This document shows, piece by piece, positions 3,001 to 31,157 of a stretch of 64,000 nt of DNA; position 1 is the stretch's first letter; each line of letters starts with the position of its first letter. The stretch comes from Beta vulgaris subsp. vulgaris (lineage: Eukaryota; Streptophyta; Magnoliopsida; Caryophyllales; Amaranthaceae). The notes under the pieces were generated by a model. It was not told the origin of the DNA. It did no database searches and saw nothing but the letters and a program-made list of their open reading frames with translations. The DNA is taken from NCBI RefSeq assembly GCF_026745355.1, contig NC_079206.1, positions 36,773,642-36,837,641 on the forward strand, in the 5' to 3' direction. The position numbers were made by a program, and so were the translations under genes.

Positions 3001-3213
3001 AAGATTAACACTTCTAAAAAATTGATTAGGTCGAAATTAAGATTCTTGAAACATTCATAAACTTAACAAAATTTTATGTAAATTCACTCTAATTGTCTGT
3101 CTCTTAAAAACATTAGACTTGTATTATTTATAGTAGAATGAAGAAGCAAGGAAACCTTGCTCTCCGAGATAGTCATAAGCCACGATTTTCCACTTGTAAA
3201 TTAGGAAAGTATG
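1..3213 (+). repeat. Satellite monomers B-C-D-E (left copy of the HOR order)
   Basis: Four monomers with boundaries near 822, 1637 and 2427. Position 1 is almost exactly at the phase landmark. The B type is recognised by GATGACACAATTACAATGC and TATAATTTTCTGAC, D by TATTTATTGAAT and a deletion in its second half, and E by CTCCGAATAAAC and loss of the TATTCTCCCTTAACT block near its end. They match the B-C-D-E order of the central HOR but carry many single-base losses (monomers of 821, 815, 790 and 787 bp). They are followed by F and A. Confidence 0.8.
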
Positions 3214-6580: not shown

Positions 6581-9500
6581 CAATACTTTACTTAATAACA
6601 ACTAAATCATACGACACTCAAGGATACGCCTTGCACGCCACTCATCCCATAAGTTTAAGGTAACTTTCCTAAAATACAACCATGATGGCTTAGAATCATA
6701 ATAAACCAAAATCATTTATAATTTTCAGACTTTAGTAAAACCAAAAACAACTCAGCTAAATAAATAATATTTTAACTAGTGATGACACTTAATTACAATG
6801 CAAATCTTCTTCAATCCAATCAATGAAATCATCCATATTAATTGAAGGATCACCAAATCCAACACTAAAATACTACTTACAGCTTTGAATTACAAAATGG
6901 TCTAAATTTAATAAATAAATAGATCAAAAAATATAATGAACTTGAGTTGCCTTGTTGCATCTGTGTAATTCTTATTTGAATGCTCAACTAGGATATTTAA
7001 ACATTCAAGAGAAACGCCAACTTTGAACATGAACAAAAGGAATTCGAAAAATAGTAACAAGGATATTTCTTAATGTATGATAATTCCTGAAACACTCACA
7101 AAGAATCTCAAACACACTCAAACCACTCCTGGAATTAAGTTGACTAAATACTAATAAGATTAACACTTCTAAAAATCTGATTAATGGGCGAAATTAAGAT
7201 TCTTGAAACAATCATAAACTTAACACAATTTTATGTAAATTCACTCTAATTGTCTATCTCTTAATGACGCTAGACTTTTATTTTTTATAGTAGAAGAAGT
7301 AAGAAAACCTTGCTCTACAAGACAGTCATAAGCCACGATTTACCACTAGTAAATTAGGAAAGTATTCTCCGTTAACTGTAGCCTAGAATCTAGCTAAATT
7401 TAAGAAAACAATAACTTATGGAAATTTATGCAATACTTTACTTAATAACAACTGAATCACACGACACTCAAGGATACGCCTTGCACGCCACTCATCCCAC
7501 AAGTTTAGGTAACTTTCCTAAAATACAACCATGATAACTTAGACTCCTAAAAACTAAAATCAGTTATAATTTACAGACTTTAGTAAAACTAAAAACAACT
7601 CAGCTAAATAAATAATATTTTAACTAGCGATGACACCTAATTAGAATGCAAATCTTCTTCAATCCAATCAACGAAATAATCCATATTAATTGAAAGATCA
7701 CCAAATCCAACACTAAAACACTACTTACCGGCTACAACTTTGAATTGCAAAATGGTCTAAATTCAATAAATAAATAGACCAAAAAATATAATGAACTTGA
7801 GTTGCCTTGTTGCATCTTTGTAATTCTTGATTTGAATGCTCAACTAGGATATCTAAACATTCAAGAGAAAAGCCAACTTTGAACAAGAACAAAAGGAATT
7901 CGAAAAATAGTAACAAGGATATTTTTTAATGACTGATAATTCCTGAAACACTCACAAAGAATCTCAAACACACTCAAACCCCTCCTGGAATTAAGTTGTT
8001 TAAATACTAATAAGATTAACACTTTTGAAAATCTGATTAATGGTTGTAATTAAGATTCTTGAAACAATCATAAACTTAACACAATTTTATGTAAATTCAC
8101 TCAAATTGTCTATCTCTTAATGACGCTAGACTTTTATTTTTTATAGTAGAAGAAGTAAGAAAACCTTGCTCTACAAGTCAGTCATAAGCCACGATTTACC
8201 ACTAGTAAATTAGGAAAGTATTCTCCCTTAATTGTAGCCTAGAATCTAGCTAAATATAAGAAAACAATAACTTATGGAAAGTTATGCAATACTTTACTTA
8301 ATAACAACTGAATCACACGACACTCAAGGATACGCCTTGCACGCCACTCATCCCACAAGTTTAAGGTAACTTTCATAAAATACAACCGTGATAACTTAGA
8401 CTCCTAATAAACAAAAATCAGTTACAATTTACAGACTTCAGTAAAACTAAAAACAACTCAGCTAAATAAATAATATTTTAACTAGCGATGACACTTAATT
8501 AGAATGCAAATCTTCTTCAATCCAATCAACAATATCCATATTATTGAATTGAAGGATCACCAAATCCAACACTAAAACACTACTTACAGGCTACAACTTT
8601 GAATTGCAAAATGGTCTAAATTCAATAAATAAATAGATCAAAAAATATAATGAACTTGAGTTACCTTGTTGCATCTGTAAAATTCTTAATTTGAATGCTC
8701 AACTAGGATATTTAAACATTCAAGAGAAATGCCAACGTTGAACAAGAACAAAAGGAATTCGAAAAATAGTAACAAGGATATTTCTTAATGAATGATAATT
8801 CCTGAAACACTCACAAAGAATCTCAAACACACTCCAACCACTCCTGAAATTAAGTTGTTTAAATACTAATAAGATTAACACTTTTCAAAATCTGTTTAAT
8901 GGTTGTAATTAAGATTCTTGAAACAATCATAAACTTAACACAATTTTACGTAAATTCAGTCTAATTGTCTATCTCTTAATGACGCTAGACTTTTATTTTT
9001 TATAGTAGAAGAAGTAAGAAAACCTTGCTCTACAAGACAGTCATAAGCCACGATTTACCACTAGTAAATTAGGAAAGTATTCTCCCTTAACTGTAGCCTA
9101 GAATCTAGCTAAATTTAAGAAAACAATAACTTATGGAAATTTATGCAATACTTTACTTAATAACAACTGAATCACACGACACTCAAGGATACGCCTTGCA
9201 CGCCACTCATCCCACAAGTTTAAGGTAACTTTCCTAAAATACAACCATGATAACTTAGACTCCTAATAAACTAAAATCAGTTATAATTTACAGACTTTAG
9301 TAAAACTAAAAACAACTCAGCTAAATAAATAATATTTTAACTAGCAATGAGACCTAATTAGAATGCAAATCTTCTTCAATCCAATCAACGAAATAATCCA
9401 TATTAATTGAAGGATCACCAAATCCAACACTAAAACACTACTTACCGGCTACAACTTTGAATTGCAAAATGGTCTAAATTCAATAAAAAAATAGATCAAA

Positions 9501-10345
9501 AAATATAATGAACTTGAGTTGCCTTGTTGCATCTGTGTAAATCTTGATTTGAATGCTCAACTAGGATATTTCAACATTCAAGAGAAAAGCCAACATTGAA
9601 CAAGAACAAAAGGAATTCGAAAAATAGTAACAAGGATATTTCTTAATAAATGATAATTCCTGAAACACTCACAAAGAATCTCAACTCCTGGAATTACCAC
9701 TAGTAAATAGTGTTCTTCAATCCAATCAACGAAATCATCCATATTAATTGAAGGATCACCAAATCCAACACTAAAACACTACTTACAGGCTACAACTTTG
9801 AATTGCAAAATGGTCTAAATTTAATAAATAAATAGATCAAAAAATATAATGAACTTGAGTTACCTTGTTGCATCTGTGTAATTCTTAACTTGAATGCTCA
9901 ACTAGGATATTTAAACATTCAAGAGAAACGCCAACTTTGAACATGAACAAAAGGAATTCGAAAAATAGTAACAAGAATATTTCTTAATGTATGATAATTC
10001 CTGAAACACTCACAAAGAATCTCAAACACACTCAAACCACTCCTGGAATTAAGTTGATTAAAATACTAATAAGATTAACATTTCTAAAAATCTTATGAAT
10101 TGTCGAAATTAAGATTCTTGGAACAATCATAAACTTAACACAATTTTATGTAAATTCATTCTAATTGCCTGTCTCTTAATGACGCTAGACTTGGATTATT
10201 TATAGTAGAAGAAGCTAGAAAACCTTGCTCTCCAAGACAATCATAAGCCACGATTTACCACTAGTAAATTAGGAAAGTATTCTCCCTTAACTGTACCCTA
10301 GAATCTAGCTAAATTTAAGAAAACAATAACTTATGGAAAGTTATG
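6581..10345 (+). repeat. Satellite monomers outside the HOR, with a rearranged unit at 9146-10345
   Basis: Monomers start at 6581, 7431, 8287 and 9146. Those at 7431, 8287 and 9146 share TTATAATTTACAGAC-type and GACTTTTATTTTTTATAG variants and form a local sub-family. The last interval is 1200 bp: the unit beginning at 9146 breaks off at about 9684 within CTCAACTCCTGGAATT, passes through a short TACCACTAGTAAAT piece and restarts at about 9717 in a second partial monomer. The second half of that partial monomer (from ~9970) is F-type (CATTTCTAAAAATCTTATG, CTTGGAAC). This looks like unequal recombination at the left edge of the HOR block. Confidence 0.8.
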
Positions 10346-13300
10346 CAATACTTTACTTAATAAAAACTGAATCACATGACACTCAAGAATACGATTTGCA
10401 CGCCACTCATCCCATAAGTTTAAGGTAACTTTCCTAAAATACAACCATGATAACTTAGACTCCTAATAAACAAAAATCAGGTAAAATTTTTAGACTTTAG
10501 TAAAACTAAAAACAACTCAGCTAAATAACTAATATTTTAACTAGCGATGTCACTTAATTACAATTCAAATCTTCTTCAATTCATTCAACGAAATCATCCA
10601 TATTAATTGAAGGATCACCAAATCCAACACTAAAACACCACTTACAGGCTACAACTTTGAATTGCAAAATGGTCTAAATTCAGTAAATAAATAGATCAAA
10701 AAATATAATGAACGTGAGTTGCCTTGTTGCATATGTGTAATTCTTAATTTGAATGCTCAACTAGGATATTTAATCATTCAAGAGAAACGCCAACTTTGAA
10801 CATGAACAAAAGGTATTCGAAAAATAGTAACAAGGATATTTGTTAATGTATGATAATTCCTGAAACACTCACAAAGAATCTTAAACACACTCAAACCACT
10901 CCTGGAATTAAGTTTTTTAAATACTAATAAGATTAACACTTCTAAAAATCTGATTGATGGTCGAAATTACGATTCTTAAAACAATCATAAAATTAACACA
11001 ATTTTATGTAAATTCACTCAAATTGTCTGTCTCTTAATGACGTTAGAGTTGTATTATTTATAGTAGAAGAAGCAAGAAAACCTTGCTCTCCAAGACAGTC
11101 ATAAGCCACGATTTACCACTAGTAAATTAGGAAAGTACTATCCCTTAACTATAGCCTAGAATCTAGCTAAATTTAAGAAAACCATAAATTATGGAAAGTT
11201 ATGCAATACTTTACTTAATAACAACTAAATCATACGACCCTCAAGGATACGCCTTGCACGCCACTCATCCCATAAGTTTAAGGTAACTTTCCTACAATAC
11301 AACCATGATAGCTTAGAATCCTAATAAACCAAAATCATTTATAATTTTCTGACTTTAGTAAAACTAAAAACAACTCAGCTAAATAAATAATATTTTAACT
11401 AGCGATGACACAATTACAATGCAAATCTTCTTCAATCCAATCAATGAAATCATCCATATTAATTGAAGGATCACCAAATCCAACACTAAAACACTACTTA
11501 CAACTTTGAATTGCAAAATGGTCTAAATTTAATAAATAAATAGATCAAAAAATATAATGAACTTGAGTTGCCTTGTTGCATCTGTGTAATTCTTAATTTG
11601 AATGCTCAACTAGGATATTTAAACATTAAGAGAAACGCCAACTTTGAACATGAACTAAAGGAATTCGAAAAATAATAACAAGGATATTTCTTACTGAATG
11701 ATAATTCCTAAAACACTCACAAAGAATCTCAAACACACTCAAACCACTCCTGGAATTAAGTTGTTTAAATACTAATAAGATTAACATTTCTAAAAATCTT
11801 ATGAATTGTCGAAATTAAGATTCTTGAAACAATCATAAACTTAACAGAATTTTATGTAAATTCATTCTAATTGACTGTCTCTTAATGACGCTAGACTTGG
11901 ATTATTTATAGTAGAAGAAGCTAGAAAACCTTGCTCTCCAAGACAATCATAAGCCACGATTTACCACTAGTAAATTAGGAAAGTATTCTCCCTTAACTGT
12001 ACCCTAGAATCTAGCTAAATTTAAGAACACAATAACTTATTGAAAGTTATGCAATACTTTACTTAATAAAAACTGAATCACATGACACTCAAGAATACGC
12101 TTTCCACGCCACTCATCCCATAAGTTTAAGGTAACTTTCCTAAAATACAACCATGATAACTTAGACTCCTAATAAACTAAAATCAGTTATAATTTTCAGA
12201 CTTTAGTAAAACTAAAAACAACTCAGCTAAATAACTAATATTTTAACTAGCGATGTCACTTAATTAAATTCAAATCTTCTTCAATCCAATCAACGAAATC
12301 ATCCATATTAATTGAAGGATCACCAAATCCAACACTAAAACACTACTTACAGGCTACAACTTTGAATTGCAAAATGGTCTAAATTCAACAAATAAATAGA
12401 TCAAAAAATATAATGAACCTGAGTTGCCTTGTTGCATATGTGTAATTCTTAATTTGAATGATCAACTAGGATATTTAATCATTCAAGAGAAACGCCAACT
12501 TTGAACATGAACAAAAGGAATTCGAAAAATAGTAACAAGGATATTTCTTAATGTATGATAATTCCTGAAACACTCAAAGAATCTCAAACACACTCAAACC
12601 ACTCTTGGAATTATGTTTTTTAAATACTAATAAGATTAACACTTCTAAAAATCTGATTAATATTCGAAATTACGATTCTTAAAACAATCATAAAATTAAC
12701 ACAATTTTATGTAAATTCACTCAAATTGTCTGTCTCTTAATGACGTTAGAGTTGTATTATTTATAGTAGAAGAAGCAAGAAAACCTTGCTCTCCAAGACA
12801 GTCATAAGCAACGATTTACCACTAGTAAATTAGGAAAGTATTCTCCCTTAACTATAGCCTAGAATCTAGCTAAATTTAAGAAAACCATAAATTATGGAAA
12901 GTTATGCAATACTTTACTTAATAACAACTAAATCATACGACACTCAAGGATACGCCTTGCACGCCACTCATCCCATAAGTTTAAGGTAACTTTCCTTAAA
13001 TACAACCATGATAGCTTAGAATCCTAATAAACCAAAATCATTTATAATTTTCAGACTTTAGTAAAACTAAAAACAACTCAGTTAAATAAATAATATTTTA
13101 ACTAGCGATGACACTTAATTACAATGTAAATCTTCTTCAATTCAATCAAGGAAATCATCCATATTTATTGAATGATCACCAAATCCAACACTAAAACACT
13201 ACTTACAGCTTTGAATTACAAAATGATCTAAATTCAATAAATAAATAGATCAGAAAATATAATGAACTTGAGTTGCCTTGTTGCATCTGTGTAATTCTTA

Positions 13301-16300
13301 ATTTGAATGCTCAACTAGGATATTTAAACATTCAATAGAAACGCCAACTTTTAAAAAGAACAAAAGGAATTCGAAAAATAATAACAAGGATATTTCTTAA
13401 TGAATGATAATTCCTAAAACACTCACAAAGAATCTCAAACACACTCAAACCACTCCAGGAATTAAGTTGTTTAAATCCTAATAAGATTAACACTTCTAAA
13501 AATCTGATCAATTGTCGAAATTCATTGTAATTGCCTGTCTCTTAATGACGCTAGACTTGTATTATTTATAGTATAAGAAGCTAGAAAACCTTGCTCTCCA
13601 AGACAATCATAAGCCACGATTTACCACTAGTAGTAAATTAGGAAAGTATTCTCCCTTAACTGTACCATAGAATCTAGCTAAATTTAAGAAAACAATAACT
13701 TATGGAAAATTATGCAATACTTTACCTAATAATAACTGAATCACACGAGACTCAAGGATACGCCTTGCACGCCACTCATCCCACAAGTTTAAGGTAACTT
13801 TCCTAAAATACAACCATGATAACTTAGACTCCGAATAAACTAAAATCAGTTATAATTTTCATACTTTAGTAAAAATAAAAACAACTCAGCTATAAATTAA
13901 TATTTTAACTAGCAATTACACTTAATTACAATGCAAATCTTCTTCAATCCAATCATGAAATCATCCATATTAATTAAAGGATCACCAAATCCAACACTAA
14001 ACACTACTTACACTTTGAATTACAAAATGGTCTAAATTCAAAAATAAATTGATCAGAAAATATAATGAATTTGAGTTGCCTGTTTGCTTCTTGTATAATT
14101 CTTAATTTGAATGATCAACTAGGATATTTAAAACAATCAATAGAAACGCAACTTTGAAAAGAACAAAAGGAATTAGAAAAAATCGTAACAAGGATATTTC
14201 TTAATGAGTGATAATTCCCGAAACACTCACAAAGAATCTAAACATACTCAAACCACTCCTGAATAATTGTTTTTTAAATACTTATAAGATTAACACTTCT
14301 AAAAAATTGATTAACGGTCGAAATTAAGATTCTTGAAACAATCATAAACTTAACAAAATTTTATGTAAATTCACTCTAATTGTCTGTCTCTTAAAAACAT
14401 TAGACTTGTATTATAGTAGATGAAGAAGAAGCAAGGAAACCTTGCTCTCCGAGATAGTCAATAAGCCACGATTTTCCACTAGTAAATTAGGAAAGTATGC
14501 AATACTTTACTTAATAAAAACTGAATCACATGACACTAAGAATACGTTTGCACGCCACTCATCCCACAAGTTTAAGGTAACTTTCCTAAAATACAACCAT
14601 GATAACTTAGACTCCTAATAAACTAAAATCAGGTAAAATTTTTAGACTTTAGTAAAACTAAAAACAACTCAGCTAAATAACTAATTTTAACTAGCGATGT
14701 CACTTAATTACAATTCAAATCTTCTTCAATCCAATCAACGAAATCATCCATATTAATTGAAGGATCACCAAATCCAACACTAAAACACCACTTACAGGCT
14801 ACAACTTTGAATTGCAAAATGGTCTAAATTCAGTAAATAAATAGATCAAAAAATATAATGAACGTGAGTTGCCTTTGCATATGTGTAATTCTTAATTTGA
14901 ATGCTCAACTAGGATATTTAATCATTCAAGAGAAACGCCAACTTTGAACATGAACAAAAGGTATTCGAAAAATAGTAACAAGGATATTTGTTAATGTATG
15001 ATAATTCCTGAAACACTCACAAAGAATCTTAAACACACTCAAACCACTCCTGGAATTAAGTTTTTTAAATACTAATAAGATTAACACTTCTAAAAATCTG
15101 ATTGATGGTCGAAATTACGATTCTTAAAACAATCATAAAATTAACACAATTTTATGTAAATTCACTCAAATTGTCTGTCTCTTAATGACGTTAGAGTTGT
15201 ATTATTTATAGTAGAAGAAGCAAGAAAACCTTGCTCTCCAAGACAGTCATAAGCCACGATTTACCACTAGTAAATTAGGAAAGTACTATCCCTTAACTAT
15301 AGCCTAGAATCTAGCTAAATTTAAGAAAACCATAAATTATGGAAAGTTATGCAATCTTTACTTAATAACAGCTAAATCATACGACACTCAAGGATACGCC
15401 TTGCACGCCACTCATCCCATAAGTTTAAGGTAACTTTCCTACAATACAACCATGATAGCTTAGAATCCTAATAAACCAAAATCATTTATAATTTTCTGAC
15501 TTTAGTAAAACTAAAAACAACTCAGGTAAATAAATAATATTTTAACTAGCGATGACACAATTACAATGCAAATCTTCTTCAATCCAATCAATGAAATCAT
15601 CCATATTAATTGAAGGATCACCAAATCCAACACTAAAACACTACTTACAACTTTGAATTGCAAAATGGTCTAAATTTAATAAATAAATAGATCAAAAAAT
15701 ATAATGAACTTGAGTTGCCTTGTTGCATCTGTGTAATTCTTAATTTGAATGCTCAACTAGGATATTTAAACATTCAAGAGAAACGCCAACTTTGAACATG
15801 AACTAAAGGAATTCGAAAAATAATAACAAGGATATTTCTTACTGAATGATAATTCCTAAAACACTCACAAAGAATCTCAAACACACTCAAACCACTCCTG
15901 GAATTAAGTTGTTTAAATACTAATAAGATTAACATTTCTAAAAATCTTATGAATTGTCGAAATTAAGATTCTTGAAACAATCATAAACTTAACAGAATTT
16001 TATGTAAATTCATTCTAATTGACTGTCTCTTAATGACGCTAGACTTGGATTATTTATAGTAGAAGAAGCTAGAAAACCTTGCTCTCCAAGACAATCATAA
16101 GCCACGATTTACCACTAGTAAATTAGGAAAGTATTCTCCCTTAACTGTACCCTAGAATCTAGCTAAATTTAAGAACACAATAACTTATTGAAAGTTATGC
16201 AATACTTTACTTAATAAAAACTGAATCACATGACACTCAAGAATACGCTTTCCACCCCACTCATCCCATAAGTTTAAGGTAACTTTCCTAAAATACAACC

Positions 16301-19300
16301 ATGATAACTTAGACTCCTAATAAACTAAAATCAATTATAATTTTCAGACTTTAGTAAAACTAAAAACAACTCAGCTAAATAACTAATATTTAACTAGCGA
16401 TGTCACTTAATTACAATTCAAATCTTCTTCAATCCAATCAACGAAATCATCCATATTAATTGAAGGATCACCAAATCCAACACTAAAACACTACTTACAG
16501 GCTACAACTTTGAATTGCAAAATGGTCTAAATTCAACAAATAAATAGATCAAAAATAATAATGAACCTGAGTTGCCTTGTTGCATATGTGTAATTCTTAA
16601 TTTGAATGATCAACTAGGATATTTAATCATTCAAGAGAAACGCCAACTTTGAACATGAACAAAAGGAATTCGAAAAATAGTAACAAGGATATTTCTTAAT
16701 GTATGATAATTCCTGAAACACTCACAAAGAATCTCAAACACACTCAAACCACTCTTGGAATTATGTTTTTTAAATACTAATAAGATTAACACTTCTAAAA
16801 ATCTGATTAATATTCGAAATTACGATTCTTAAAACAATCATAAAATTAACACAATTTTATGTAAATTCACTCAAATTGTCTGTCTCTTAATGACGTTAGA
16901 GTTGTATTATTTATAGTAGAAGAAGCAAGAAAACCTTGCTCTCCAAGACAGTCATAAGCAACGATTTACCACTAGTAAATTAGGAAAGTATTCTCCCTTA
17001 ACTATAGCCTAGAATCTAGCTAAATTTAAGAAAACCATAAATTATGGAAAGTTATGCAATACTTTACTTAATAACAACTAAATCATACGACACTCAAGGA
17101 TACGCCTTGCACGCCACTCATCCCATAAGTTTAAGGTAACTTTCCTTAAATACAACCATGATAGCTTAGAATCCTAATAAACCAAAATCATTTATAATTT
17201 TCAGACTTTAGTAAAACTAAAAACAACTCAGTTAAATAAATAATATTTTAACTAGCAATGACACTTAATTACAATGTAAATCTTCTTCAATTCAATCAAG
17301 GAAATCATCCATATTTATTGAATGATCACCAAATCCAACACTAAAACACTACTTACAGCTTTGAATTACAAAATGATCTAAATTCAATAAATAAATAGAT
17401 CAGAAAATATAATGAACTTGAGTTGCCTTGTTTCATCTGTGTAATTCTTAATTTGAATGCTCAACTAGGATATTTAAACATTCAATAGAAACGCCAACTT
17501 TTAAAAAGAACAAAAGGAATTCGAAAAATAATAACAAGGATATTTCTTAATGAATGATAATTCCTAAAACACTCACAAAGAATCTCAAACACACTCAAAC
17601 CACTCCAGGAATTAAGTTGTTTAAATCCTAATAAGATTAACACTTCTAAAAATCTGATTAATTGTCGAAATTCATTGTAATTGCCTGTCTCTTAATGACG
17701 TAGACTTGTATTATTTATAGTATAAGAAGCTAGAAAACCTTGCTCTCCAAGACAATCATAAGCCACGATTTACCACTAGTAGTAAATTAGGAAAGTATTC
17801 TCCCTTAACTGTACCATAGAATCTAGCTAAATTTAAGAAAACAATAACTTATGGAAAATTATGCAATACTTTACCTAATAATAACTGAATCACACGAGAC
17901 TCAAGGATACGCCTTGCACGCCACTCATCCCACAAGTTTAAGGTAACTTTCCTAAAATACAACCATGATAACTTAGACTCCTAATAAACTAAAATCAGTT
18001 ATAATTTTCATACTTTAGTAAAAATAAAAACAACTCAGCTAAATAAATAATATTTTAACTAGCAATTACACTTAATTACAATGCAAATCTTCTTCAATCC
18101 AATCAATGAAATCATCCATATTAATTAAAGGATCACCAAATCCAACACTAAAACACTACTTACACCTTTGAATTACAAAATGGTCTAAATTCAATAAATA
18201 AATTGATCAGAAAATATAATGAATTTGAGTTGCCTGGTTGCTTCTGTATAATTCTTAATTTGAATGATCAACTAGGATATTTAAACAATCAATAGAAACG
18301 CCAACTTTGAAAAGAACAAAAGGAATTAGAAAAATCGTAACAAGGATATTTCTTAATGAGTGATAATTCCCGAAACACTCACAAAGAATCTAAACATACT
18401 CAAACCACTCCTGTAATTAAGTTTTTTAAATACTTATAAGATTAACACTTCTAAAAATTGATTAACGGTCGAAATTAAGATTCTTGAAACAATCATAAAC
18501 TTAACAAAATTTTATGTAAATTACTCTAATTGTCTGTCTCTTAAAAACATTAGACTTGTATTATTTATAGTAGAATGAAGAAGCAAGGAAACCTTGCTCT
18601 CCGAGATAGTCATAAGCCACGATTTTCCACTAGTAAATTAGGAAAGTATGCAATACTTTACTTAATAAAACTGAATCACATGACACTCAAGAATACGCTA
18701 TGCACGCCACTCATCCCACAAGTTTAAGGTAACTTTCCTAAAATACAACCATGATAACTTAGACTCCTAATAAACTAAAATCAGTTATAATTTTCAGACT
18801 TTAGTAAAACTAAAAACAACTCAGCTAAATAACTAATATTTTAACTAGCGATGTCACTTAATTACAATTCATATTTTCTTCAATCCAATCAACGAAATCA
18901 TCCATAATAATTGAAGGATCACCAAATCCAACACTAAAACACTACTTACAGGCTACAACTTTAAATTGCAAAATGGTCTAAATTCAATAAATAAATAGAT
19001 CAAAAAATATAATGAACTTGAGTTGCCTTGTTGCATCTGTGTAATTCTTAATTTGAATGCTAAACTAGGACATTTAATCATTCAACAGAAACGCCAACTT
19101 TGAACATGAACTAAAGGAATTCGAAAAATAGTAACAAGAATATTTCTTAATGTATGATAATTCCTGAAACACTCACAAAGAATCTCAAACACACTCAAAC
19201 CACTCCTGGAATTAAGTTGTTTAAATACTAATAAGATTAACATTTCTAAAAATCTTATGAATGTCGAAATTAAGATTCTTGAACAATCATAAACTTAACA

Positions 19301-19502
19301 CAATTTTATGTAAATTCATTCTAATTGCTGTCTCTTAATGACGTAGACTTGGATTATTTATAGTAGAAGAAGCTAAGAAAACCTTGCTCTCCAAGACAAT
19401 CATAAGCCACGATTTACCACTAGTAAATTAGGAAAGTATTCCCCTTAACTGTACCTAGAATCTAGCTAAATTTAAGAAAACAATAACTTATGGAAAGTTA
19501 TG
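10346..19502 (+). repeat. Super higher-order repeat, copy 1 (11 monomers, 9157 bp)
   Basis: Order: A (10346), B (11204), C (12052), D (12907), E (13716), F/A hybrid (14500), B (15352), C (16200), D (17057), E (17864), F (18651). The two five-monomer halves measure 4154 and 4151 bp. Monomer lengths repeat in register (for example 858/848/855/809/784 and 852/848/857/807/787). The halves can be told apart: first-half C has TTCCACGCC (12102) and first-half E has CTCCGAATAAAC (~13829); second-half C has TTCCACCCC (16250) and second-half E has CTCCTAATAAAC (~17978). Confidence 0.9.
14500..15351 (+). repeat. F/A hybrid satellite monomer
   Basis: The head is F-type (CCCACAAG at ~14565, as at ~3277) and the body is A-type (CAGGTAAAATTTTTAGAC from ~14630; CAGTAAATAAATAG; GAACGTGAG). 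A pure A monomer has CCCATAAG in the head (4137, 10410, 19569). The switch therefore lies between ~14570 and ~14630. It joins E directly to an A-type unit and removes one monomer. Confidence 0.85.
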
Positions 19503-22500
19503 CAATACTTTACTTAATAAAAACTGAATCACATGACACTCAAGAATACGATTTGCACGCCACTCATCCCATAAGTTTAAGGTAACTTTCCTAAAATACA
19601 ACCATGATAACTTAGACTCCTAATAAACAAAATCAGGTAAAATTTTTAGACTTTAGTAAAACTAAAAACAACTCAGCTAAATAACTAATATTTTAACTAG
19701 CGATGTCACTTAATTACAATTCAAATCTTCTTCAATTCAATCAACGAAATCATCCATATTAATTGAAGGATCACCAAATCCAACACTAAAACACCACTTA
19801 TAGGCTACAACTTTGAATTGCAAAATGGTCTAAATTCAGTAAATAAATAGATCAAAAAATATAATGAACGTGAGTTGCCTTGTTGCATATGTGTAATTCT
19901 TAATTTGAATGCTCAACTAGGATATTTAATCATTCAAGAGAAACGCCAACTTTGAACATGAACAAAAGGTATTCGAAAAATAGTAACAAGGATATTTGTT
20001 AATGTATGATAATTCCTGAAACACTCACAAAGAATCTTAAACACACTCAAACCACTCCTGGAATTAAGTTTTTTAAATACTAATAAGATTAACACTTCTA
20101 AAAATCTGATTGATGGTCGAAATTGAGATTCTTAAAACAATCATAAAATTAACACAATTTTATGTAAATTCACTCAAATTGTCTGTCTCTTAATGACGTT
20201 AGAGTTGTATTATTTATAGTAGAAGAAGCAAGAAAACCTTGCTCTCCAAGACAGTCATAAGCCACGATTTACCACTAGTAAATTAGGAAAGTACTATCCC
20301 TTAACTATAGCCTAGAATCTAGCTAAATTTAAGAAAACCATAAATTATGGAAAGTTATGCAATACTTTACTTAATAACAACTAAATCATACGACACTCAA
20401 GGATACGCCTTGCACGCCACTCATCCCATAAGTTTAAGGTAACTTTCCTACAATACAACCATGATAGCTTAGAATCCTAATAAACCAAAATCATTTATAA
20501 TTTTCTGACTTTAGTAAAACTAAAAACAACTCAGCTAAATAAATAATATTTTAACTAGCGATGACACAATTACAATGCAAATCTTCTTCAATCCAATCAA
20601 TGAAATCATCCATATTAATTGAAGGATCACCAAATCCAACACTAAAACACTACTTACAACTTTGAATTGCAAAATGGTCTAAATTTAATAAATAAATAGA
20701 TCAAAATGTAATAATGAACTATTGCCTTTTTCATCTGTGTAATTCTAATTTGAATGCTCAACTAGGATTTAAACATTCAAGAGAGAAACGCCAACTTTGA
20801 ACATGAACTAAAGGAATTCTCGAAAAATAATAACAAGGATATTTCTTACTGAATGATAATTCCTAAAACACTCACAAAGAATCTCAAACACACTCAAACC
20901 ACTCCTGGAATTAAGTTGTTTAAATACTAATAAGATTAACATTTCTAAAAATCTTATGAATTGTCGAAATTAAGATTCTTGAAACAATCATAAATTAACA
21001 GAATTTTATGTAAATTCATTCTAATTGACTGTCTCTTAATGACGCTAGACTTGGATTATTTATAGTAGAAGAAGCTAGAAAACCTTGCTCTCCAAGACAA
21101 TCATAAGCCACGATTTACCACTAGTAAATTAGGAAAGTATTCTCCCTTAACTGTACCCTAGAATCTAGCTAAATTTAAGAACACAATAACTTATTGAAAG
21201 TTATGCAATACTTTACTTAATAAAAACTGAATCACATGACACTCAAGAATACGCTTTCCACGCCACTCATCCCATAAGTTTAAGGTAACTTTCCTAAAAT
21301 ACAACCATGATAACTTAGACTCCTAATAAACTAAAATCAGTTATAATTTTCAGACTTTAGTAAAACTAAAAACAACTCAGCTAAATAACTAATATTTTAA
21401 CTAGCGATGTCACTTAATTACAATTCAAATCTTCTTCAATCCAATCAACGAAATCATCCATATTAATTGAAGGATCACCAAATCCAACACTAAAACACTA
21501 CTTACAGGCTACAACTTTGAATTGCAAAATGGTCTAAATTCAACAAATAAATAGATCAAAAATATAATGAACCTGAGTTGCCTTGTTGCATATGTGTAAT
21601 TCTTAATTTGAATGATCAACTAGGATATTTAATCATTCAAGAGAAACGCCAATTTGAACATGAACAAAAGGAATTCGAAAAATAGTAACAAGGATATTTC
21701 TTAATGTATGATAATTCCTGAAACACTCACAAAGAATCTCAAACACACTCAAACCACTCTTGGAATTATGTTTTTTAAATACTAATAAGATTAACACTTC
21801 TAAAAATCTGATTAATATTCGAAATTACGATTCTTAAAACAATCATAAAATTAACACAATTTTATGTAAATTCACTCAAATTGTCTGTCTCTTAATGACG
21901 TTAGAGTTGTATTATTTATAGTAGAAGAAGCAAGAAAACCTTGCTCTCCAAGACAGTCATAAGCAACGATTTACCACTAGTAAATTAGGAAAGTATTCTC
22001 CCTTAACTATAGCCTAGAATCTAGCTAAATTTAAGAAAACCATAAATTATGGAAAGTTATGCAATACTTTACTTAATAACAACTAAATCATACGACACTC
22101 AAGGATACGCCTTGCACGCCACTCATCCCATAAGTTTAAGGTAACTTTCCTTAAATACAACCATGATAGCTTAGAATCCTAATAAACCAAAATCATTTAT
22201 AATTTTCAGACTTTAGTAAAACTAAAAACAACTCAGTTAAATAAATAATATTTTAACTAGCGATGACACTTAATTACAATGTAAATCTTCTTCAATTCAA
22301 TCAAGGAAATCATCCATATTTATTGAATGATCACCAAATCCAACACTAAAACACTACTTACAGCTTTGAATTACAAAATGATCTAAATTCAATAAATAAA
22401 TAGATCAGAAAATATAATGAACTTGAGTTCCTTGTTGCATCTGTGTAATTCTTAATTTGAATGCTCAACTAGGATATTTAAACATTCAATAGAAACGCCA

Positions 22501-25500
22501 ACTTTTAAAAAGAACAAAAGGAATTCGAAAAATAATAACAAGGATATTTCTTAATGAATGATAATTCCTAAAACACTCACAAAGAATCTCAAACACACTC
22601 AAACCACTCCAGGAATTAAGTTGTTTAAATCCTAATAAGATTAACACTTCTAAAAATCTGATTAATTGTCGAAATTCATTGTAATTGCCTGTCTCTTAAT
22701 GACGCTAGACTTGTATTATTTATAGTATAAGAAGCTAGAAAACCTTGCTCTCCAAGACAATCATAAGCCACGATTTACCACTAGTAGTAAATTAGGAAAG
22801 TATTCTCCCTTAACTGTACCATAGAATCTAGCTAAATTTAAGAAAACAATAACTTATGGAAAATTATGCAATACTTTACCTAATAATAACTGAATCACAC
22901 GAGACTCAAGGATACGCCTTGCACGCCACTCATCCCACAAGTTTAAGGTAACTTTCCTAAAATACAACCATGATAACTTAGACTCCGAATAAACTAAAAT
23001 CAGTTATAATTTTCATACTTTAGTAAAATAAAAACAACTCAGCTAAATAATAATATTTTAACTAGCAATTACACTTAATTACAATGCAAATCTTCTTCAA
23101 TCCAATCAATGAAATCATCCATATTAATTAAAGGATCACCAAATCCAACACTAAAACACTACTTACACCTTTGAATTACAAAATGGTCTAAATTCAATAA
23201 ATAAATTGATCAGAAAATATAATGAATTTGAGTTGCCTGGTTGCTTCTGTATAATTCTTAATTTGAATGATCAACTAGGATATTTAAACATTCAATAGAA
23301 ACGCCAACTTTGAAAAGAACAAAAGGAATTAGAAAAATCGTAACAAGGATATTTCTTAATGAGTGATAATTCCCGAAACACTCACAAAGAATCTCAAACA
23401 TACTCAAACCACTCCTGTAATTAAGTTTTTTAAATACTTATAAGATTAACACTTCTAAAAAATTGATTAACGGTCGAAATTAAGATTCTTGAAACAATCA
23501 TAAACTTAACAAAATTTTATGTAAATTCACTCTAATTGTCTGTCTCTTAAAAACATTAGACTTGTATTATTTATAGTAGAATGAAGAAGCAAGGAAACCT
23601 TGCTCTCCGAGATAGTCATAAGCCACGATTTTCCACTAGTAAATTAGGAAAGTATGCAATACTTTACTTAATAAAAACTGAATCACATGACACTCAAGAA
23701 TACGCTTTGCACGCCACTCATCCCACAAGTTTAAGGTAACTTTCCTAAAATACAACCATGATAACTTAGACTCCTAATAAACTAAAATCAGGTAAAATTT
23801 TTAGACTTTAGTAAAACTAAAAACAACTCATCTAAATAACTAATATTTTAACTAGCGATGTCACTTAATTACAATTCAAATCTTCTTCAATCCAATCAAC
23901 GAAATCATCCATATTAATTGAAGGATCACCAAATCCAACACTAAAACACCACTTACAGGCTACAACTTTGAATTGCAAAATGGTCTAAATTCAGTAAATA
24001 AATAGATCAAAAAATATAATGAACGTGAGTTGCCTTGTTGCATATGTGTAATTCTTAATTTGAATGCTCAACTAGGATATTTAATCATTCAAGAGAAACG
24101 CCAACTTTGAACATGAACAAAAGGTATTCGAAAAATAGTAACAAGGATATTTGTTAATGTATGATAATTCCTGAAACACTCACAAAGAATCTTAAACACA
24201 CTCAAACCACTCCTGGAATTAAGTTTTTTAAATACTAATAAGATTAACACTTCTAAAAATCTGATTGATGGTCGAAATTACGATTCTTAAAACAATCATA
24301 AAATTAACACAATTTTATGTAAATTCACTCAAATTGTCTGTCTCTTAATCACGTTAGAGTTGTATTATTTATAGTAGAAGAAGCAAGAAAACCTTGCTCT
24401 CCAAGACAGTCATAAGCCACGATTTACCACTAGTAAATTAGGAAAGTACTATCCCTTAACTATAGCCTAGAATCTAGCTAAATTTAAGAAAACCATAAAT
24501 TATGGAAAGTTATGCAATACTTTACTTAATAACAGCTAAATCATACGACACTCAAGGATACGCCTTGCACGCCACTCATCCCATAAGTTTAAGGTAACTT
24601 TCCTACAATACAACCATGATAGCTTAGAATCCTAATAAACCAAAATCATTTATAATTTTCTGACTTTAGTAAAACTAAAAACAACTCAGCTAAATAAATA
24701 ATATTTTAACTAGCGATGACACAATTACAATGCAAATCTTCTTCAATCCAATCAATGAAATCATCCATATTAATTGAAGGATCACCAAATCCAACACTAA
24801 AACACTACTTACAACTTTGAATTGCAAAATGGTCTAAATTTAATAAATAAATAGATCAAAAAATATAATGAACTTGAGTTGCCTTGTTGCATCTGTGTAA
24901 TTCTTAATTTGAATGCTCAACTAGGATATTTAAACATTCAAGAGAAACGCCAACTTTGAACATGAACTAAAGGAATTCGAAAAATAATAACAAGGATATT
25001 TCTTACTGAATGATAATTCCTAAAACACTCACAAAGAATCTCAAACACACTCAAACCACTCCTGGAATTAAGTTGTTTAAATACTAATAAGATTAACATT
25101 TCTAAAAATCTTATGAATTGTCGAAATTAAGATTCTTGAAACAATCATAAACTTAACAGAATTTTATGTAAATTCATTCTAATTGACTGTCTCTTAATGA
25201 CGCTAGACTTGGATTATTTATAGTAGAAGAAGCTAGAAAACCTTGCTCTCCAAGACAATCATAAGCCACGATTTACCACTAGTAAATTAGGAAAGTATTC
25301 TCCCTTAACTGTACCCTAGAATCTAGCTAAATTTAAGAACACAATAACTTATTGAAAGTTATGCAATACTTTACTTAATAAAAACTGAATCACATGACAC
25401 TCAAGAATACGCTTTCCACCCCACTCATCCCATAAGTTTAAGGTAACTTTCCTAAAATACAACCATGATAACTTAGACTCCTAATAAACTAAAATCAATT

Positions 25501-28500
25501 ATAATTTTCAGACTTTAGTAAAACTAAAAACAACTCAGCTAAATAACTAATATTTTAACTAGCGATGTCACTTAATTACAATTCAAATCTTCTTCAATCC
25601 AATCAACGAAATCATCCATATTAATTGAAGGATCACCAAATCCAACACTAAAACACTACTTACAGGCTACAACTTTGAATTGCAAAATGGTCTAAATTCA
25701 ACAAATAAATAGATCAAAAAATATAATGAACCTGAGTTGCCTTGTTGCATATGTGTAATTCTTAATTTGAATGATCAACTAGGATATTTAATCATTCAAG
25801 AGAAACGCCAACTTTGAACATGAACAAAAGGAATTCGAAAAATAGTAACAAGGATATTTCTTAATGTAGATAATTCCTGAAACACTCACAAAGAATCTCA
25901 AACACACTCAAACCACTCTTGGAATTATGTTTTTTAAATACTAATAAGATTAACACTTCTAAAAATCTGATTAATATTCGAAATTACGATTCTTAAAACA
26001 ATCATAAAATTAACACAATTTTATGTAAATTCACTCAAATTGTCTGTCTCTTAATGACGTTAGAGTTGTATTATTTATAGTAGAAGAAGCAAGAAAACCT
26101 TGCTCTCCAAGACAGTCATAAGCAACGATTTACCACTAGTAAATTAGGAAAGTATTCTCCCTTAACTATAGCCTAGAATCTAGCTAAATTTAAGAAAACC
26201 ATAAATTATGGAAAGTTATGCAATACTTTACTTAATAACAACTAAATCATACGACACTCAAGGATACGCCTTGCACGCCACTCATCCCATAAGTTTAAGG
26301 TAACTTTCCTTAAATACAACCATGATAGCTTAGAATCCTAATAAACCAAAATCATTTATAATTTTCAGACTTTAGTAAAACTAAAAACAACTCAGTTAAA
26401 TAAATAATATTTTAACTAGCGATGACACTTAATTACAATGTAAATCTTCTTCAATTCAATCAAGGAAATCATCCATATTATTGAATGATCACCAAATCCA
26501 ACACTAAAACACTACTTACAGCTTTGAATTACAAAATGATCTAAATTCAATAAATAAATAGATCAGAAATATAATGAACTTGAGTTGCCTTGTTGCATCT
26601 GTGTAATTCTTAATTTGAATGCTCAACTAGGATATTTAAACATTCAATAGAAACGCCAACTTTTAAAAAGAACAAAAGGAATTCGAAAAATAATAACAAG
26701 GATATTTCTTAATGAATGATAATTCCTAAAACACTCACAAAGAATCTCAAACACACTCAAACCACTCCAGGAATTAAGTTGTTTAAATCCTAATAAGATT
26801 AACACTTCTAAAAATCTGATTAATTGTCGAAATTTCATTGTAATTGCCTGTCTCTTAATGACGCTAGACTTGTATTATTTATAGTATAAGAAGCTAGAAA
26901 ACCTTGCTCTCCAAGACAATCATAAGCCACGATTTACCACTAGTAGTAAATTAGGAAAGTATTCTCCCTTAACTGTACCATAGAATCTAGCTAAATTTAA
27001 GAAAACAATAACTTATGGAAATTATGCAATACTTTACCTAATAATAACTGAATCACACGAGACTCAAGGATACGCCTTGCACGCCACTCATCCCACAAGT
27101 TTAAGGTAACTTTCCTAAAATACAACCATGATAACTTAGACTCCTAATAAACTAAAATCAGTTATAATTTTCATACTTTAGTAAAATAAAAAAAACTCAG
27201 CTAAATAAATAATATTTTAACTAGCAATGACACTTAATTACAATGCAAATCTTCTTCAATCCAATCAATGAAATCATCCATATTAATTAAAGGATCACCA
27301 AATCCAACACTAAAACACTACTTACACCTTTGAATTACAAAATGGTCTAAATTCAATAAATAAATTGATCAGAAAATATAATGAATTTGAGTTGCCTGGT
27401 TGCATCTGTATAATTCTTAATTTGAATGATCAACTAGGATATTTAAACATTCAATAGAAACGCCAACTTTGAAAAGAACAAAAGGAATTAGAAAAATCGT
27501 AACAAGGATATTTCTTAATGAGTGATAATTCCGAAACACTCACAAAGAATCTCAAACATACTCAAACCACTCCTGTAATTAAGTTTTTAAATACTTATAA
27601 GATTAACACTTCTAAAAATTGATTAACGGTCGAAATTAAGATTCTTGAAACAATCATAAACTTAACAAAATTTTATGTAAATTCACTCTAATTGTCTGTC
27701 TCTTAAAACATTAGACTTGTATTATTTATAGTAGAATGAAGAAGCAAGGAAACCTTGCTCTCCGAGATAGTCATAAGCCACGATTTCCACTAGTAAATTA
27801 GGAAAGTATGCAATACTTTACTTAATAAAACTGAATCACATGACACTCAAGAATACGCTTGCACGCCACTCATCCCACAAGTTTAAGGTAACTTTCCTAA
27901 AATACAACCATGATAACTTAGACTCCTAATAAACTAAAATCAGTTATAATTTTCAGACTTTAGTAAAACTAAAAACAACTCAGCTAAATAACTAATATTT
28001 TAACTAGCGATGTCACTTAATTACAATTCAATTTCTTCAATCCAATCAACGAAATCATCCATAATAATTGAAGGATCACCAAATCCAACACTAAAACACT
28101 ACTTACAGGCTACAACTTTAATTGCAAAATGGTCTAAATTCAATAAATAAATAGATCAAAAAATATAATGAACTTGAGTTGCCTTGTTGCATCTGTGTAA
28201 TTCTTAATTTGAATGCTAACTAGGATATTTAACATTCAACAGGAAACGCCAACTTTGAACATGAACTAAAGGAATTCGAAAAATAGTAACAAGATATTTC
28301 TTAATGTATGATAATTCCTGAAACACTCACAAAGAATCTCAAACACACTCAAACCACTCCTGGAATTAAGTTGTTTAAATACTAATAAGATTAACATTTC
28401 TAAAAATCTTATGAATTGTCGAAATTAAGATTCTTGAAACAATCATAAACTTAACACAATTTTATGTAAATTCACTCAAATTGTCTGTCTCTTAATGACG

Positions 28501-28660
28501 TTAGACTTGATTATTTTATAGTAGAAGAAGCAGAAAACCTTGCTCTCCAAGACAATCATAAGCCACGATTTACCACTAGTAAATTAGGAAAGTATTCTCC
28601 CTTAACTGTACCCTAGAATCTAGCTAAATTTAAGAAAACAATAACTTATGGAAAGTTATG
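19503..28660 (+). repeat. Super higher-order repeat, copy 2 (11 monomers, 9158 bp)
   Basis: Order: A (19503), B (20360), C (21206), D (22062), E (22869), F/A hybrid (23657), B (24516), C (25364), D (26221), E (27027), F (27811). Total length differs from copy 1 by one base. Diagnostic variants fall in the same places: TTCCACGCC at ~21256 but TTCCACCCC at ~25414; CTCCGAATAAAC at ~22982 but CTCCTAATAAAC at ~27140; AATAACAGCTAAATC in the second B (~24528), as at ~15365. The F monomers at 18651 and 27811 both have CCATAATAATTG where the F at 3214 has CCATATTAATTG. Confidence 0.9.
23657..24515 (+). repeat. F/A hybrid satellite monomer, second copy
   Basis: Same hybrid structure as the unit at 14500: GCTTTGCACGCC and CCCACAAG in the head (F-like, ~23704-23730), then CAGGTAAAATTTTTAGAC (A-like, from ~23789). 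The shared breakpoint interval indicates one recombination event followed by amplification. Confidence 0.85.
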
Positions 28661-31157
28661 CAATACTTTACTTAATAAAAACTGAATCACATGACACTCA
28701 AGAATACGTTGCACGCCACTCATCCCATAAGTTTAAGGTAACTTTCCTAAAATACAACCATGATAACTTAGACTCCTAATAAACTAAAATCAGTAAATTT
28801 TAGACTTTAGTAAAACTAAAAAAACTCAGCTAAATAACTAATATTTTAACTAGCGATGCACTTAATTACAATTCAAATCTTCTTCAATCCAATCAACGAA
28901 ATCATCCATATTAATTGAAGGATCACCAAATCCAACACTAAAACACACTTACAGCTACAACTTTGAATTGCAAAATGGTCTAAATTCATAAATAAATAGA
29001 TCAAAAATATAATGAACTGAGTTGCCTTGTTGCATTGTGTAATTCTTAATTTGAATGCTCAACTAGGATATTTAAACATTCAAGAGAAACGCCAACTTTG
29101 AACAAGAACAAAAGGAATTCGAAAAATAGTAACAAGGATATTTTAATGTATGATAATTCCTGAAACACTCACAAAGAATCTCAAACACACTCAAACCACT
29201 CCTGGAATTAAGTTTTTTAAATACTAATAAGATTAACACTTCTAAAAATCTGATTAATGGTCGAAATTAGATTCTTAAACAATCATAAATTAACACAATT
29301 TTATGTAAATTCACTCAAATTGTCTGTCTCTTAATGATTAGAGTTGTATTATTTATAGTAGAAGAAGCAAGAAAACCTTGCTCTCCAAGACAGTCATAAG
29401 CCACATTTACCACTAGTAAATTAGGAAAGTATTCTCCCTTAACTATAGCCTAGAATCTAGCTAAATTTAAGAAAACCATAAATTATGGAAAGTTATGCAA
29501 TACTTTACTTAATAAAACTAAATCATACGACACTCAAGGATACGCCTTGCACGCCACTCATCCCAAAGTTTAAGGTAACTTTCCTAAAAAACAACCATGA
29601 TAACTTAGAATCCTAATAAACCAAAATCAGTTATAATTTTCAGACTTTAGTAAAACTAAAAACAACTCAGCTAAATAACTAATATTTTAACTAGCGATGA
29701 CACTTAATTACAATGCAAATCTTCTTCAATCCAATCAATGAAATCATCCATATTAATTGAAGGATCACCAAATCCAACACTAAAACACTATTACACTTTG
29801 AATTAAAATGGTCTAAATTCAATAAATAAATAGATCTGAAAATATAATGAACTTGAGTTGCCTTGTTGCATCTGTGTAATTCTTAATTTGAATGCTCAAC
29901 TAGGATATTTAAACATTCAAGAGAAACGCCAACTTTGAAAAAGAACAAAAGGAATTCGAAAAATAGTAACAAGGATATTTCTTAATGAATGATAATTCCT
30001 AAAACACTCACAAAGAATCTCAAACACACTCAAACCACTCCTGGAATTAAGTTGTTTAAATACTAATAAGATTAACACTTTTAAAAATCTGATTAATGGT
30101 CGAAATTAAGATTCTTGAAACAATCATAAACTTAACACAATTTTATGTAAATTCATCTAATGTTCTGTCTCTTAATGACGCTAGATTGTATTATTTATAG
30201 TGAAGAAGCAAGAAAACCTTGCTCTCAAGACAGTCATAACCACGATTTACCACTAGTAAATTAGGAAAGTATTCTCCCTTAACTGTACCTATAATCTAGC
30301 TAAATTTAAGAAAACAATAACTTATGGAAATTATGCAATACTTTACTAATAAAACTGAATCACACGAACTCAAGATACGCCTTGCACGCCACTCATCCAC
30401 AAGTTTAAGGTAACTTTCCTAAAATACAACCATGATAACTTAGACTCCTAATAAACTAAAATCAGTTATAATTTTCAACTTTAGTAAAATAAAAAAAACT
30501 CAGCTAAATAATAATATTTTAACTAGCAGTGACACTTAATTACAATGCAAATCTTCTTCAATCCAATCAACGAAATCATCCAATTAATTAAGGATCACCA
30601 AATCCAACACTAAAACACTACTTACAGCTTTGAATTACAAAATGGTCTAAATTCAATAAATAATTGATCAAAATATAATGAATTGAGTTGCCTTGTTGCA
30701 TCTGTGTAATTCTTTATTTGAATGCTCAACTAGGATATTTAAACATTCAAGAGAAACACCAACTTTGAAAAGAACAAAAGGAATTCGAAAAATAGTAACA
30801 AGGATATTTCTTAATGTATGATAATTCCTAAACACTCACAAAGAATCTCAAACAACTCAAACCACTCTGGAATTAAGTTTTTAAATACTAATAAGATTAA
30901 CACTTCTAAAATCTGATTAAGGTCGAAATTAAGATTCTTGAAACAATCATAAACTTAACAAATTTTATGTAAATTCACTCTAATTGTCTGTCTCTTAATG
31001 ACGTAGATTGTATTATTTATAGTAGAAAGAGCAAGAAACCTTGCTCTCAAGACAGTCATAAGCCACGATTTACCACTAGTAAATTAGGAAAGTATTCTCC
31101 CTTAACTTAGCCTAGAATCTAGCTAAATTTAAGAAAACAAAATTATGGAAAGTTATG
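27811..31157 (+). repeat. Satellite block F-A-G-H (right copy)
   Basis: Boundaries at 27811 (F, shared with the end of super-HOR copy 2), 28661 (A-like, CAGTAAATTTTAGAC with base losses), 29498 (G, TCCTAAAAAACAACC and GAATCCTAATAAACC) and 30336 (H, AATAATTGATC and ATTAAGGATC). The order is the same as at 3214-6580. Single-base losses are frequent, mostly in short A or T runs. Confidence 0.7.

What the first reader, a model, noticed from the sequence alone, without database searches (positions are those of the whole stretch)
10346..28660. An 11-monomer, ~9.16 kb super higher-order repeat with diagnostic variants
Monomers A-B-C-D-E-(F/A)-B-C-D-E-F occupy 10346-19502 (9157 bp) and repeat at 19503-28660 (9158 bp). 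The halves within each copy differ in consistent ways: C has TTCCACGCC in halves 1 and 3 and TTCCACCCC in halves 2 and 4; E has CTCCGAATAAAC in 1 and 3 and CTCCTAATAAAC in 2 and 4; the second-half B has AATAACAGCTAAATC; the second-half C has AATCAATTATAAT. So the real repeat is 11 monomers, not five. Multi-kilobase HORs of ~0.85-kb monomers are unusual in plants, where reported HORs mostly use shorter monomers.
Basis: seen in the sequence. Interest (0 to 1): 0.75.

Follow-up and report, generated by a model that had tools for sequence, protein, structure and literature searches.

The report
Satellite repeat caught growing by misaligned exchange
A beet-like plant chromosome carries a long tandem repeat in which an 11-unit block is present twice; a nearby unexpanded version of the same stretch suggests that the block grew by two out-of-register recombination events, a known process with an unusually readable before-and-after record.

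Summary
Window 1-40401 is a head-to-tail array of 48 monomers, 47 of them 784-859 bp. Half pairing is only partly supported: 8 informative sites for 1,3|2,4, 3 for 1,2|3,4, 0 for 1,4|2,3. Monomers 18 and 29 are F-to-A hybrids, breakpoint between monomer columns 70 and 136. Just to the left, partly outside the window, lies an apparently unexpanded relative, P-Q-R*-A-B-C-D-E-F-A-X (its C by position only); the expanded stretch is P-Q-R*-[11-mer]x2-A-X. Enumeration on labels finds one two-step exchange path between them: F x leading A, then trailing A x leading A. The array lies on a 67.9-Mb contig of a 569-Mb genome, probably Beta vulgaris, near assembly gaps and an inverted array of the same satellite with other local multimers. 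Excess one-base deletions look like long-read consensus errors. A known kind of structure with an unusually clear history. Centromere function is untested.

The parts
10346..19502 (+). 11-mer copy 1: monomers m13-m23 = A B C D E (F/A) B C D E F, 9157 bp
   Evidence: blastn segmentation, nearest-neighbour matrix, tree
19503..28660 (+). 11-mer copy 2: monomers m24-m34, same order, 9158 bp, 99.38% identical to copy 1 over aligned bases
14500..15351 (+). m18, F-to-A hybrid monomer of copy 1: F-type at column 70, A-type at the 25 other A/F diagnostic columns (136-843)
23657..24514 (+). m29, F-to-A hybrid monomer of copy 2, same breakpoint interval as m18, F-like at column 49 too
7431..10345 (+). 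Left flank of the expanded segment: m10 (P), m11 (Q), m12 (R*, 1200 bp, carries a 341-bp internal tandem duplication at 9372-10025)
   Evidence: TRF; 98.6, 98.3 and 99.2% identical to e19, e20, e21 left of the window
28661..30335 (+). Right flank of the expanded segment: m35 (trailing A) and m36 (X)
   Evidence: m35's best match is m06 (98.2%), m36's best is m07 (98.2%); trailing-A states at columns 793 and 795
1..5778 (+). In-window part of the unexpanded segment S1: m01-m07 = B C(by position) D E F A X; its P Q R* A (e19-e22) lies left of the window at contig 36769885-36773639
1..40401 (+). Satellite array in the window, 48 monomers, about 29% GC; its right end lies here
   Evidence: array continues left to contig 36751816, at an N gap

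Best explanation
This is a non-coding satellite DNA array with monomers of about 850 bp, in which two successive out-of-register homologous exchanges turned an 11-monomer stretch (P Q R* A B C D E F A X) into a 27-monomer stretch (P Q R* [A B C D E F/A B C D E F]x2 A X). Step 1: F of one copy recombined with the leading A of the other (offset five monomers), breaking between monomer columns 70 and 136 and leaving an F-to-A hybrid; this made the 11-mer in one event. Step 2: the trailing A recombined with the leading A (offset eleven monomers), probably 5' of column 236, duplicating the whole 11-mer. Before this, a larger block had been duplicated at 13-monomer spacing, which left an unexpanded 'before' version next to the expanded one. 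Shown: monomer order, the hybrid, the two segments with matching flanks, and that at the level of labels no single exchange and only one two-exchange path connects them. Inferred: that the exchange was between sister chromatids or homologues (unequal crossing over) rather than break-induced replication, the direction (growth, not shrinkage), and that m02 is the C of S1. No gene product or centromere role is shown. The confidence is for this order of events by out-of-register homologous exchange of any kind.
For: Order and identity of monomers. S1 and S2 share flanks: e19~m10 98.6%, e20~m11 98.3%, e21~m12 99.2%, m07~m36 98.2%. For 9 of 11 S1 monomers the best match among the other 69 is a copy of the predicted S2 partner; the exceptions are given under evidence against. 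e21 and m12 share the same 341-bp internal duplication. Hybrids: m18 and m29 are F-type at column 70 and A-type at 25 of 25 later diagnostic columns, 136-843. Separate check: at columns 793 and 795 leading A (e22, m13) reads C,A and trailing A (m06, m35) reads T,C; m18, m24 and m29 all read C,A, as the model requires. Direction: at A column 236 m13 and m24 have T, while e22 and 35 of 37 monomers outside S1 and the unit have C; at B 21, C 57 and C 135 the second-half state is the rare one and S1 has the common one, so S1 looks like an outgroup, not like a derivative of half 1. Enumeration of single exchanges from the S1 order: 0 one-step and 1 two-step path to the S2 order. The size difference of 16 monomers equals 5 + 11. 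Of six exact strings tested in 324 kb of the contig, four occur only in the 11-mers and two (the truncated-E junction and CTCCGAATAAAC) only there and in S1.
Against: Only one fully diagnostic substitution (column 70) marks the F-type 5' part of the hybrids, and its base C is also common elsewhere (21 of 37 other monomers). e22 is nearest to the hybrid m18 (97.8%), then m13 (97.7%). m06, the trailing A of S1, is nearest to m18 (99.1%), m24, m13 and m29, and only fifth to m35 (98.2%), its predicted partner. m02 is a poor C: 94.2% to m15; at 23 C/F diagnostic columns it is C-type at 9, F-type at 5, neither at 2, missing at 7, and the tree puts it with F (98/71). In the tree m03 joins m16 (100/81) and m05 joins m23 (94/80) inside the S2 classes, which the growth direction does not predict. 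m34 departs from m23 and m05 at many clustered sites, which needs patch conversion or consensus error. In E the state G at column 119 is shared by m04, m17 and m28 against T in 36 of 37 others, so the second-half T needs a reversal or conversion. Three informative sites in E favour the 12|34 split. At column 537 e22 reads C like the trailing A, so that site is not a clean test. The enumeration used labels only and exchanges within the S1 stretch only.
Confidence: 0.72

Rival explanations
1. Assembly artefact: one 9.16-kb unit, or the S1/S2 pair, was written twice by the assembler from noisy long reads, so the copy number of two is not real.
For: Departures from the class consensus (18 A-E monomers, m17 and m25 left out) are 24 one-base deletions, 5 one-base insertions, 3 longer deletions and 32 substitutions, against 547 substitutions and 12 one-base indels summed over the 10 class-consensus pairs; Fisher P = 1.6e-23 (the pairs share columns, so P is only a guide). 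26 other monomers (m01-m11, m34-m48) show 152 one-base deletions against 11 insertions relative to the family consensus. Outside three monomer pairs the two 11-mers differ at only 16 bases plus 28 gap columns. N gaps lie at 36750817-36751815, 36924226-36925225 and 36972923-36994023.
Against: The copies have different flanks (R* before copy 1; trailing A and X after copy 2) and differ at substitutions such as those in A and E. The S1/S2 relation and the hybrid do not depend on the copy number being exactly two. Tandem arrays are more often collapsed than expanded by assemblers (general knowledge).
Confidence: 0.1
2. Within the same order of events, the products arose by break-induced replication or template switching at a stalled fork, or by reinsertion of an extrachromosomal circle, not by reciprocal unequal crossing over. 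(The figure is the share given to these routes if the order of events is right.)
For: Break-induced replication is proposed for nested human multimers (PMC8997354, passages). [quoted passage not shown] These routes leave the same hybrid junctions.
Against: Nothing here separates them; the junctions are homologous and in register, which fits all of them.
Confidence: 0.35
3. Shrinkage: the 27-monomer stretch is older and the 11-monomer stretch S1 is a deletion derivative.
For: Unequal exchange also deletes; order alone could be explained this way. In the tree m03 joins m16 and m05 joins m23; m04 shares the rare E state at column 119 with m17 and m28.
Against: The hybrid needs a pre-existing pure F and a pure leading A. 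m01 lies outside the clade of the four B copies, and m06 outside the clade of m13, m24, m18, m29. e22 lacks the T at column 236 that m13 and m24 share. S1 D is 97.6-98.1% to all four S2 D copies and S1 E 98.6-98.9% to three of four.
Confidence: 0.1
4. The 11-mer is a functional centromere unit, homogenised because CenH3 nucleosomes sit on it.
For: Mid-contig position (36.8 of 67.9 Mb), nearby gaps and Ty3/gypsy remnants would fit a pericentromere; long-monomer centromeric satellites exist in other plants.
Against: If the species is Beta vulgaris, ChIP-seq found pBV (variants of 327-385 bp) as the only satellite in CenH3 chromatin, with Beetle retrotransposons (PMC4881148, passages). Only two copies of the 11-mer were found. 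No CENP-B-box-like site in the window at up to 3 mismatches.
Confidence: 0.05

Closest known systems
Human alpha-satellite higher-order repeats with hybrid monomers (CEN5, CEN8)
   Same: Multimeric unit of distinct monomers, unit copies more alike than the monomers within a unit, hybrid monomers (PMC10053651, passages), less ordered monomers around it (PMC8997354, passages).
   Different: Monomer about 850 bp instead of 171 bp, only two copies found, no CENP-B-box-like site in the window, and monomer classes already 90.7-96.3% alike where human monomers within a unit may be 50-70%.
Long-monomer plant satellites: Vicia faba VfSat (687-2033 bp), potato centromeric satellites (979-5390 bp), Allium AfCen1K (about 1.2 kb)
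   Same: Monomer size class; AT-rich and without internal subrepeats in most Vicia families (PMC5895790, passages; PMC7644871, passages).
   Different: In the passages seen, no multi-kilobase higher-order unit is described for them; here one is resolved together with its hybrid junction and an apparent precursor.
Sugar beet satellites pBV and pEV
   Same: Probably the same species; tandem arrays tied to heterochromatin.
   Different: pBV variants are 327-385 bp, 573 bp for variant VI (PMC4881148, passages); sequence relation to this 851-bp consensus was not tested because no reference sequence was on hand.
Lathyrus FabTR-2 higher-order repeats
   Same: Array-specific mixtures of simple higher-order patterns in a plant satellite (PMC7004042, passages).
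   Different: FabTR-2 builds on a 49-bp consensus.

Membership tests
Satellite DNA | Long head-to-tail array of similar non-coding monomers | tested here: met
   48 monomers in 40.4 kb of the window, 62 kb on the contig with two interruptions and an N gap at its left end; longest stop-free stretch of the monomer consensus 62 codons; the array was not scanned for protein domains
Higher-order repeat | Units of several distinct monomers repeated in tandem, unit copies more alike than neighbouring monomers | tested here: met
   Unit copies 99.38% against class means of 90.7-96.3% between classes; 0 of 200000 label shuffles give the period
Higher-order repeat | Homogenised over many unit copies | tested here: not met
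   Two copies in 324 kb of contig C6; the rest of the genome was not searched for the unit
Retrotransposon-derived satellite | Sequence similarity to a retrotransposon | tested here: inconclusive
   No hit better than E 0.16 to the Ty3/gypsy-bearing flank 40402-64000; not compared with a retrotransposon library
Centromeric satellite | CenH3 occupancy | not testable with these tools
   No chromatin data; a recalled CENP-B-box pattern gave 0 matches in the window
Multimer of a short satellite monomer | Internal subrepeats in the 850-bp monomer | tested here: not met
   Best autocorrelation lag 207 at 35.0% against a mean of 29.9% (sd 1.5) over all lags; TRF only runs of 4 and about 9-10 bases; self-blast only short hits (at most 36 bp) with E 0.04 or worse

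The most novel reading that the evidence does not exclude
A plant satellite with 0.85-kb monomers keeps, side by side in one array, the unexpanded ancestor and the product of a two-step out-of-register exchange, with the breakpoint of the first step mapped to a 65-column interval; the array is thus a readable record of the birth of a higher-order repeat and could be used to measure exchange rate and tract in relatives.
Probability: 0.6. Interest if true: 0.5.

Novelty: new member of a known kind. Interest (0 to 1): 0.4.

Why it matters
Models of satellite evolution predict that unequal exchange makes hybrid monomers and that later exchanges copy them as part of longer units, but large arrays have usually been overwritten many times. 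Here the expansion is small enough that start and product can both be read and the path between them is short. It also suggests that kilobase-class monomers can form multimers in the same way as 170-bp ones. It does not change what is known about the process itself.

Tried and rejected
A protein-coding or tandem-gene reading of the monomer: rejected, longest stop-free stretch 62 codons. Monomer as a multimer of a shorter repeat (for example 171 bp): not supported. Monomer as a copy of sequence in the retrotransposon-bearing right flank: no support; a TATA-like stretch was noticed by eye only and not tested. CENP-B box: none in the window. Uniform pairing of halves 1/3 and 2/4: rejected for D and E. 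Gene conversion from another class as the source of the dense private changes: for m17, 21 of 33 columns are shared with no other monomer, 8 with 1-4 and 4 with 41-42; for m25, 18 of 22 with none, 3 with 1 and 1 with 7, so local consensus error is more likely. m34 has 25 such columns, five of them (some beside gaps) shared with 14-43 others, so it may be partly converted. Column 236 was flagged as F-type in the hybrids, but e22, m06 and m35 have the same base, so it says nothing about the hybrid. Rows dropped: m12 was left out of the tree and of the private-state comparison; m17 and m25 were left out of the class indel tally, and the other tally took 26 of 48 monomers (m01-m11, m34-m48). Nine of the 16 listed ORFs were scanned against Pfam; two of the nine had no family. 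The rest of the genome was searched with one 855-base monomer (23 matches, all on C6, only 3 of 320 first-look candidates scored) and one 22-base pattern (155 matches with up to 1 mismatch, 100 listed, all 100 on C6, the other 55 not seen). An earlier count said 104 listed and 26 A-like columns; recounted, these are 100 listed and 25 columns.
Full report
What is there. Window 1-40401 is a satellite array of 48 head-to-tail monomers on the + strand, 47 of 784-859 bp and one of 1200 bp, about 29% GC. The rest of the window holds Ty3/gypsy-type retrotransposon pieces: of nine ORFs scanned, seven match gag, reverse transcriptase, integrase zinc-binding, Tf2-1-like SH3 or aspartyl-protease families, one of the protease matches below its curated cut-off. 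There is also one Rfam match, a plant C/D snoRNA. The 851-bp monomer consensus shows no clear subrepeats and no stop-free stretch above 62 codons.

By nearest neighbours and by tree, m13-m23 and m24-m34 read A B C D E (F/A) B C D E F. Mean identity between classes is 90.7-96.3%. Within a class the copies inside the two 11-mers are 97.0-100% alike. The two 11-mers share 99.38% of 9123 aligned bases, with 57 mismatches and 57 indel events. All quoted motifs were found where stated.

Half pairing. Aligning the four 5-mers gives 11 informative sites: 8 for 13|24 (A 2, B 1, C 2, E 3), 3 for 12|34 (all in E) and 0 for 14|23. In the tree m13+m24 (97/77), m18+m29 (99/78), m19+m30 (98/84) and m20+m31 (98/91) pair; D and E do not. 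At five of the six substitution sites of the 13|24 kind, one half carries a state that is rare among 37 monomers outside S1 and the unit; the sixth (A column 70) is mixed there.

Quality of the sequence. Excluding m17 and m25, departures of 18 A-E monomers from their class consensus are 32 substitutions, 24 one-base deletions, 5 one-base insertions and 3 longer deletions; summed over the 10 pairs of class consensuses there are 547 substitutions and 12 one-base indels. Twenty-six other monomers show 152 one-base deletions against 11 insertions relative to the family consensus. That excess and its direction look like residual errors of a noisy long-read assembly. Outside the pairs m14/m25, m17/m28 and m23/m34 the two 11-mers differ at 16 bases and 28 gap columns.

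The hybrid. With A = m13, m24, e22, m06, m35 and F = m23, m34, m05, there are 26 A/F diagnostic columns; m18 and m29 are F-type at the first (column 70) and A-type at the other 25 (136-843). Column 49 also fits F in m29. The weak point is that the 5' side rests on few sites, and the base at column 70 is common in the family (21 of 37).

Outside the window. The genome was reached: 569,194,541 bases in 20 contigs, window at C6:36773642-36837641 of a 67,926,025-base contig. The array extends left to 36751816, where it meets 999 N. The monomers e19-e22 with m01-m07 read P Q R* A B C D E F A X, and m10-m36 read P Q R* [11-mer]x2 A X. Identities to S2 partners: e19~m10 98.6, e20~m11 98.3, e21~m12 99.2, e22~m13 97.7, m01~m14 95.8, m02~m15 94.2, m03~m16 98.1, m04~m28 98.9, m05~m23 98.9, m06~m35 98.2, m07~m36 98.2. 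For 9 of 11 this partner class is the best match among the other 69 monomers; e22 is nearest to the hybrid m18, and m06 is nearer to four leading or hybrid A copies than to m35. e21 and m12 share the 341-bp internal duplication. m02 is C mainly by position: at 23 C/F columns it is C-type at 9, F-type at 5, neither at 2, missing at 7, and the tree puts it with F.

Reconstruction. Starting from the S1 order and allowing any single exchange between two copies of it, no one-step product and only one two-step path equals the S2 order: F x leading A (offset 5), then trailing A x leading A (offset 11) (labels only). A separate prediction is that the 3' parts of m18, m24 and m29 come from the leading A. 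At columns 793 and 795, where leading A (e22, m13) has C,A and trailing A (m06, m35) has T,C, all three have C,A. For the direction, e22 has the common C at column 236 where m13 and m24 share a T, and m01 and m06 fall outside the B copies and outside m13, m24, m18, m29. Against it, m03 joins m16 and m05 joins m23 in the tree, and m34 differs from both m23 and m05 in clusters, which needs conversion or consensus error.

Neighbourhood. An inverted array of the same family lies at C6:36925226-37007641 and reaches the end of what I fetched, with N gaps of 1000 bases beside it and 21101 bases in it; it has a local 3-mer (r04-r09), a 2-mer pattern, and a 7-monomer block present twice (r41-r47 ~ r63-r69). 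A more diverged array lies at 37104063-37112249. None of the six strings tested occurs in those two stretches, and none of the top-five matches of the 69 monomers classified is an A-F monomer. Local multimers of different length in one family point to repeated out-of-register exchange rather than to selection for this 11-mer (inference).

Comparison. Long-monomer plant satellites are known (PMC5895790, PMC7644871; passages), as are plant higher-order repeats of short monomers (PMC7004042, passages) and human hybrid monomers (PMC10053651, passages). The unequal exchange and break-induced replication models are described in PMC8997354 (passages). In the listings and passages from nine searches I saw no plant case with kilobase-class monomers, a resolved hybrid and its precursor, but the library lacks most subscription papers and I read no paper in full.

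Verdict. Real, mostly as described, and a known kind of structure; the added value is the apparent precursor next door and the short, resolved path between the two. The copy number of exactly two, the direction and any centromere role remain unproved.

Noticed in passing
window 1-40401 (monomers m01-m11, m34-m48): Strong excess of one-base deletions (152 to 11 insertions against the family consensus), suggesting unpolished long-read consensus in this region of the assembly.
   Followed up: yes
C6:36925226-37007641 (minus strand): Inverted array of the same satellite with local 3-mer, 2-mer and 7-monomer block repeats and a 21-kb N gap.
   Followed up: partly
C6:36762405-36763069: 665-bp insertion in a satellite monomer; monomer coordinates overlap by about 12 bp across it, possibly a target-site duplication.
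   Followed up: no
C6:36756384-36759087: 2.7-kb non-satellite stretch between monomers, its first 360 bp or so rich in internal direct and inverted repeats.
   Followed up: no
window 62396-62501 (-): Match to plant snoR71 C/D-box snoRNA (63.4 bits, gathering score 40).
   Followed up: no
window 46642-46913 and 48518-48870: Inverted repeats 1.6-2.1 kb apart (arms 88-95% complementary), possibly a small DNA transposon.
   Followed up: no
window 51881-58581: Two oppositely oriented Ty3/gypsy-type fragments adjoining at about 54.2-54.5 kb.
   Followed up: partly
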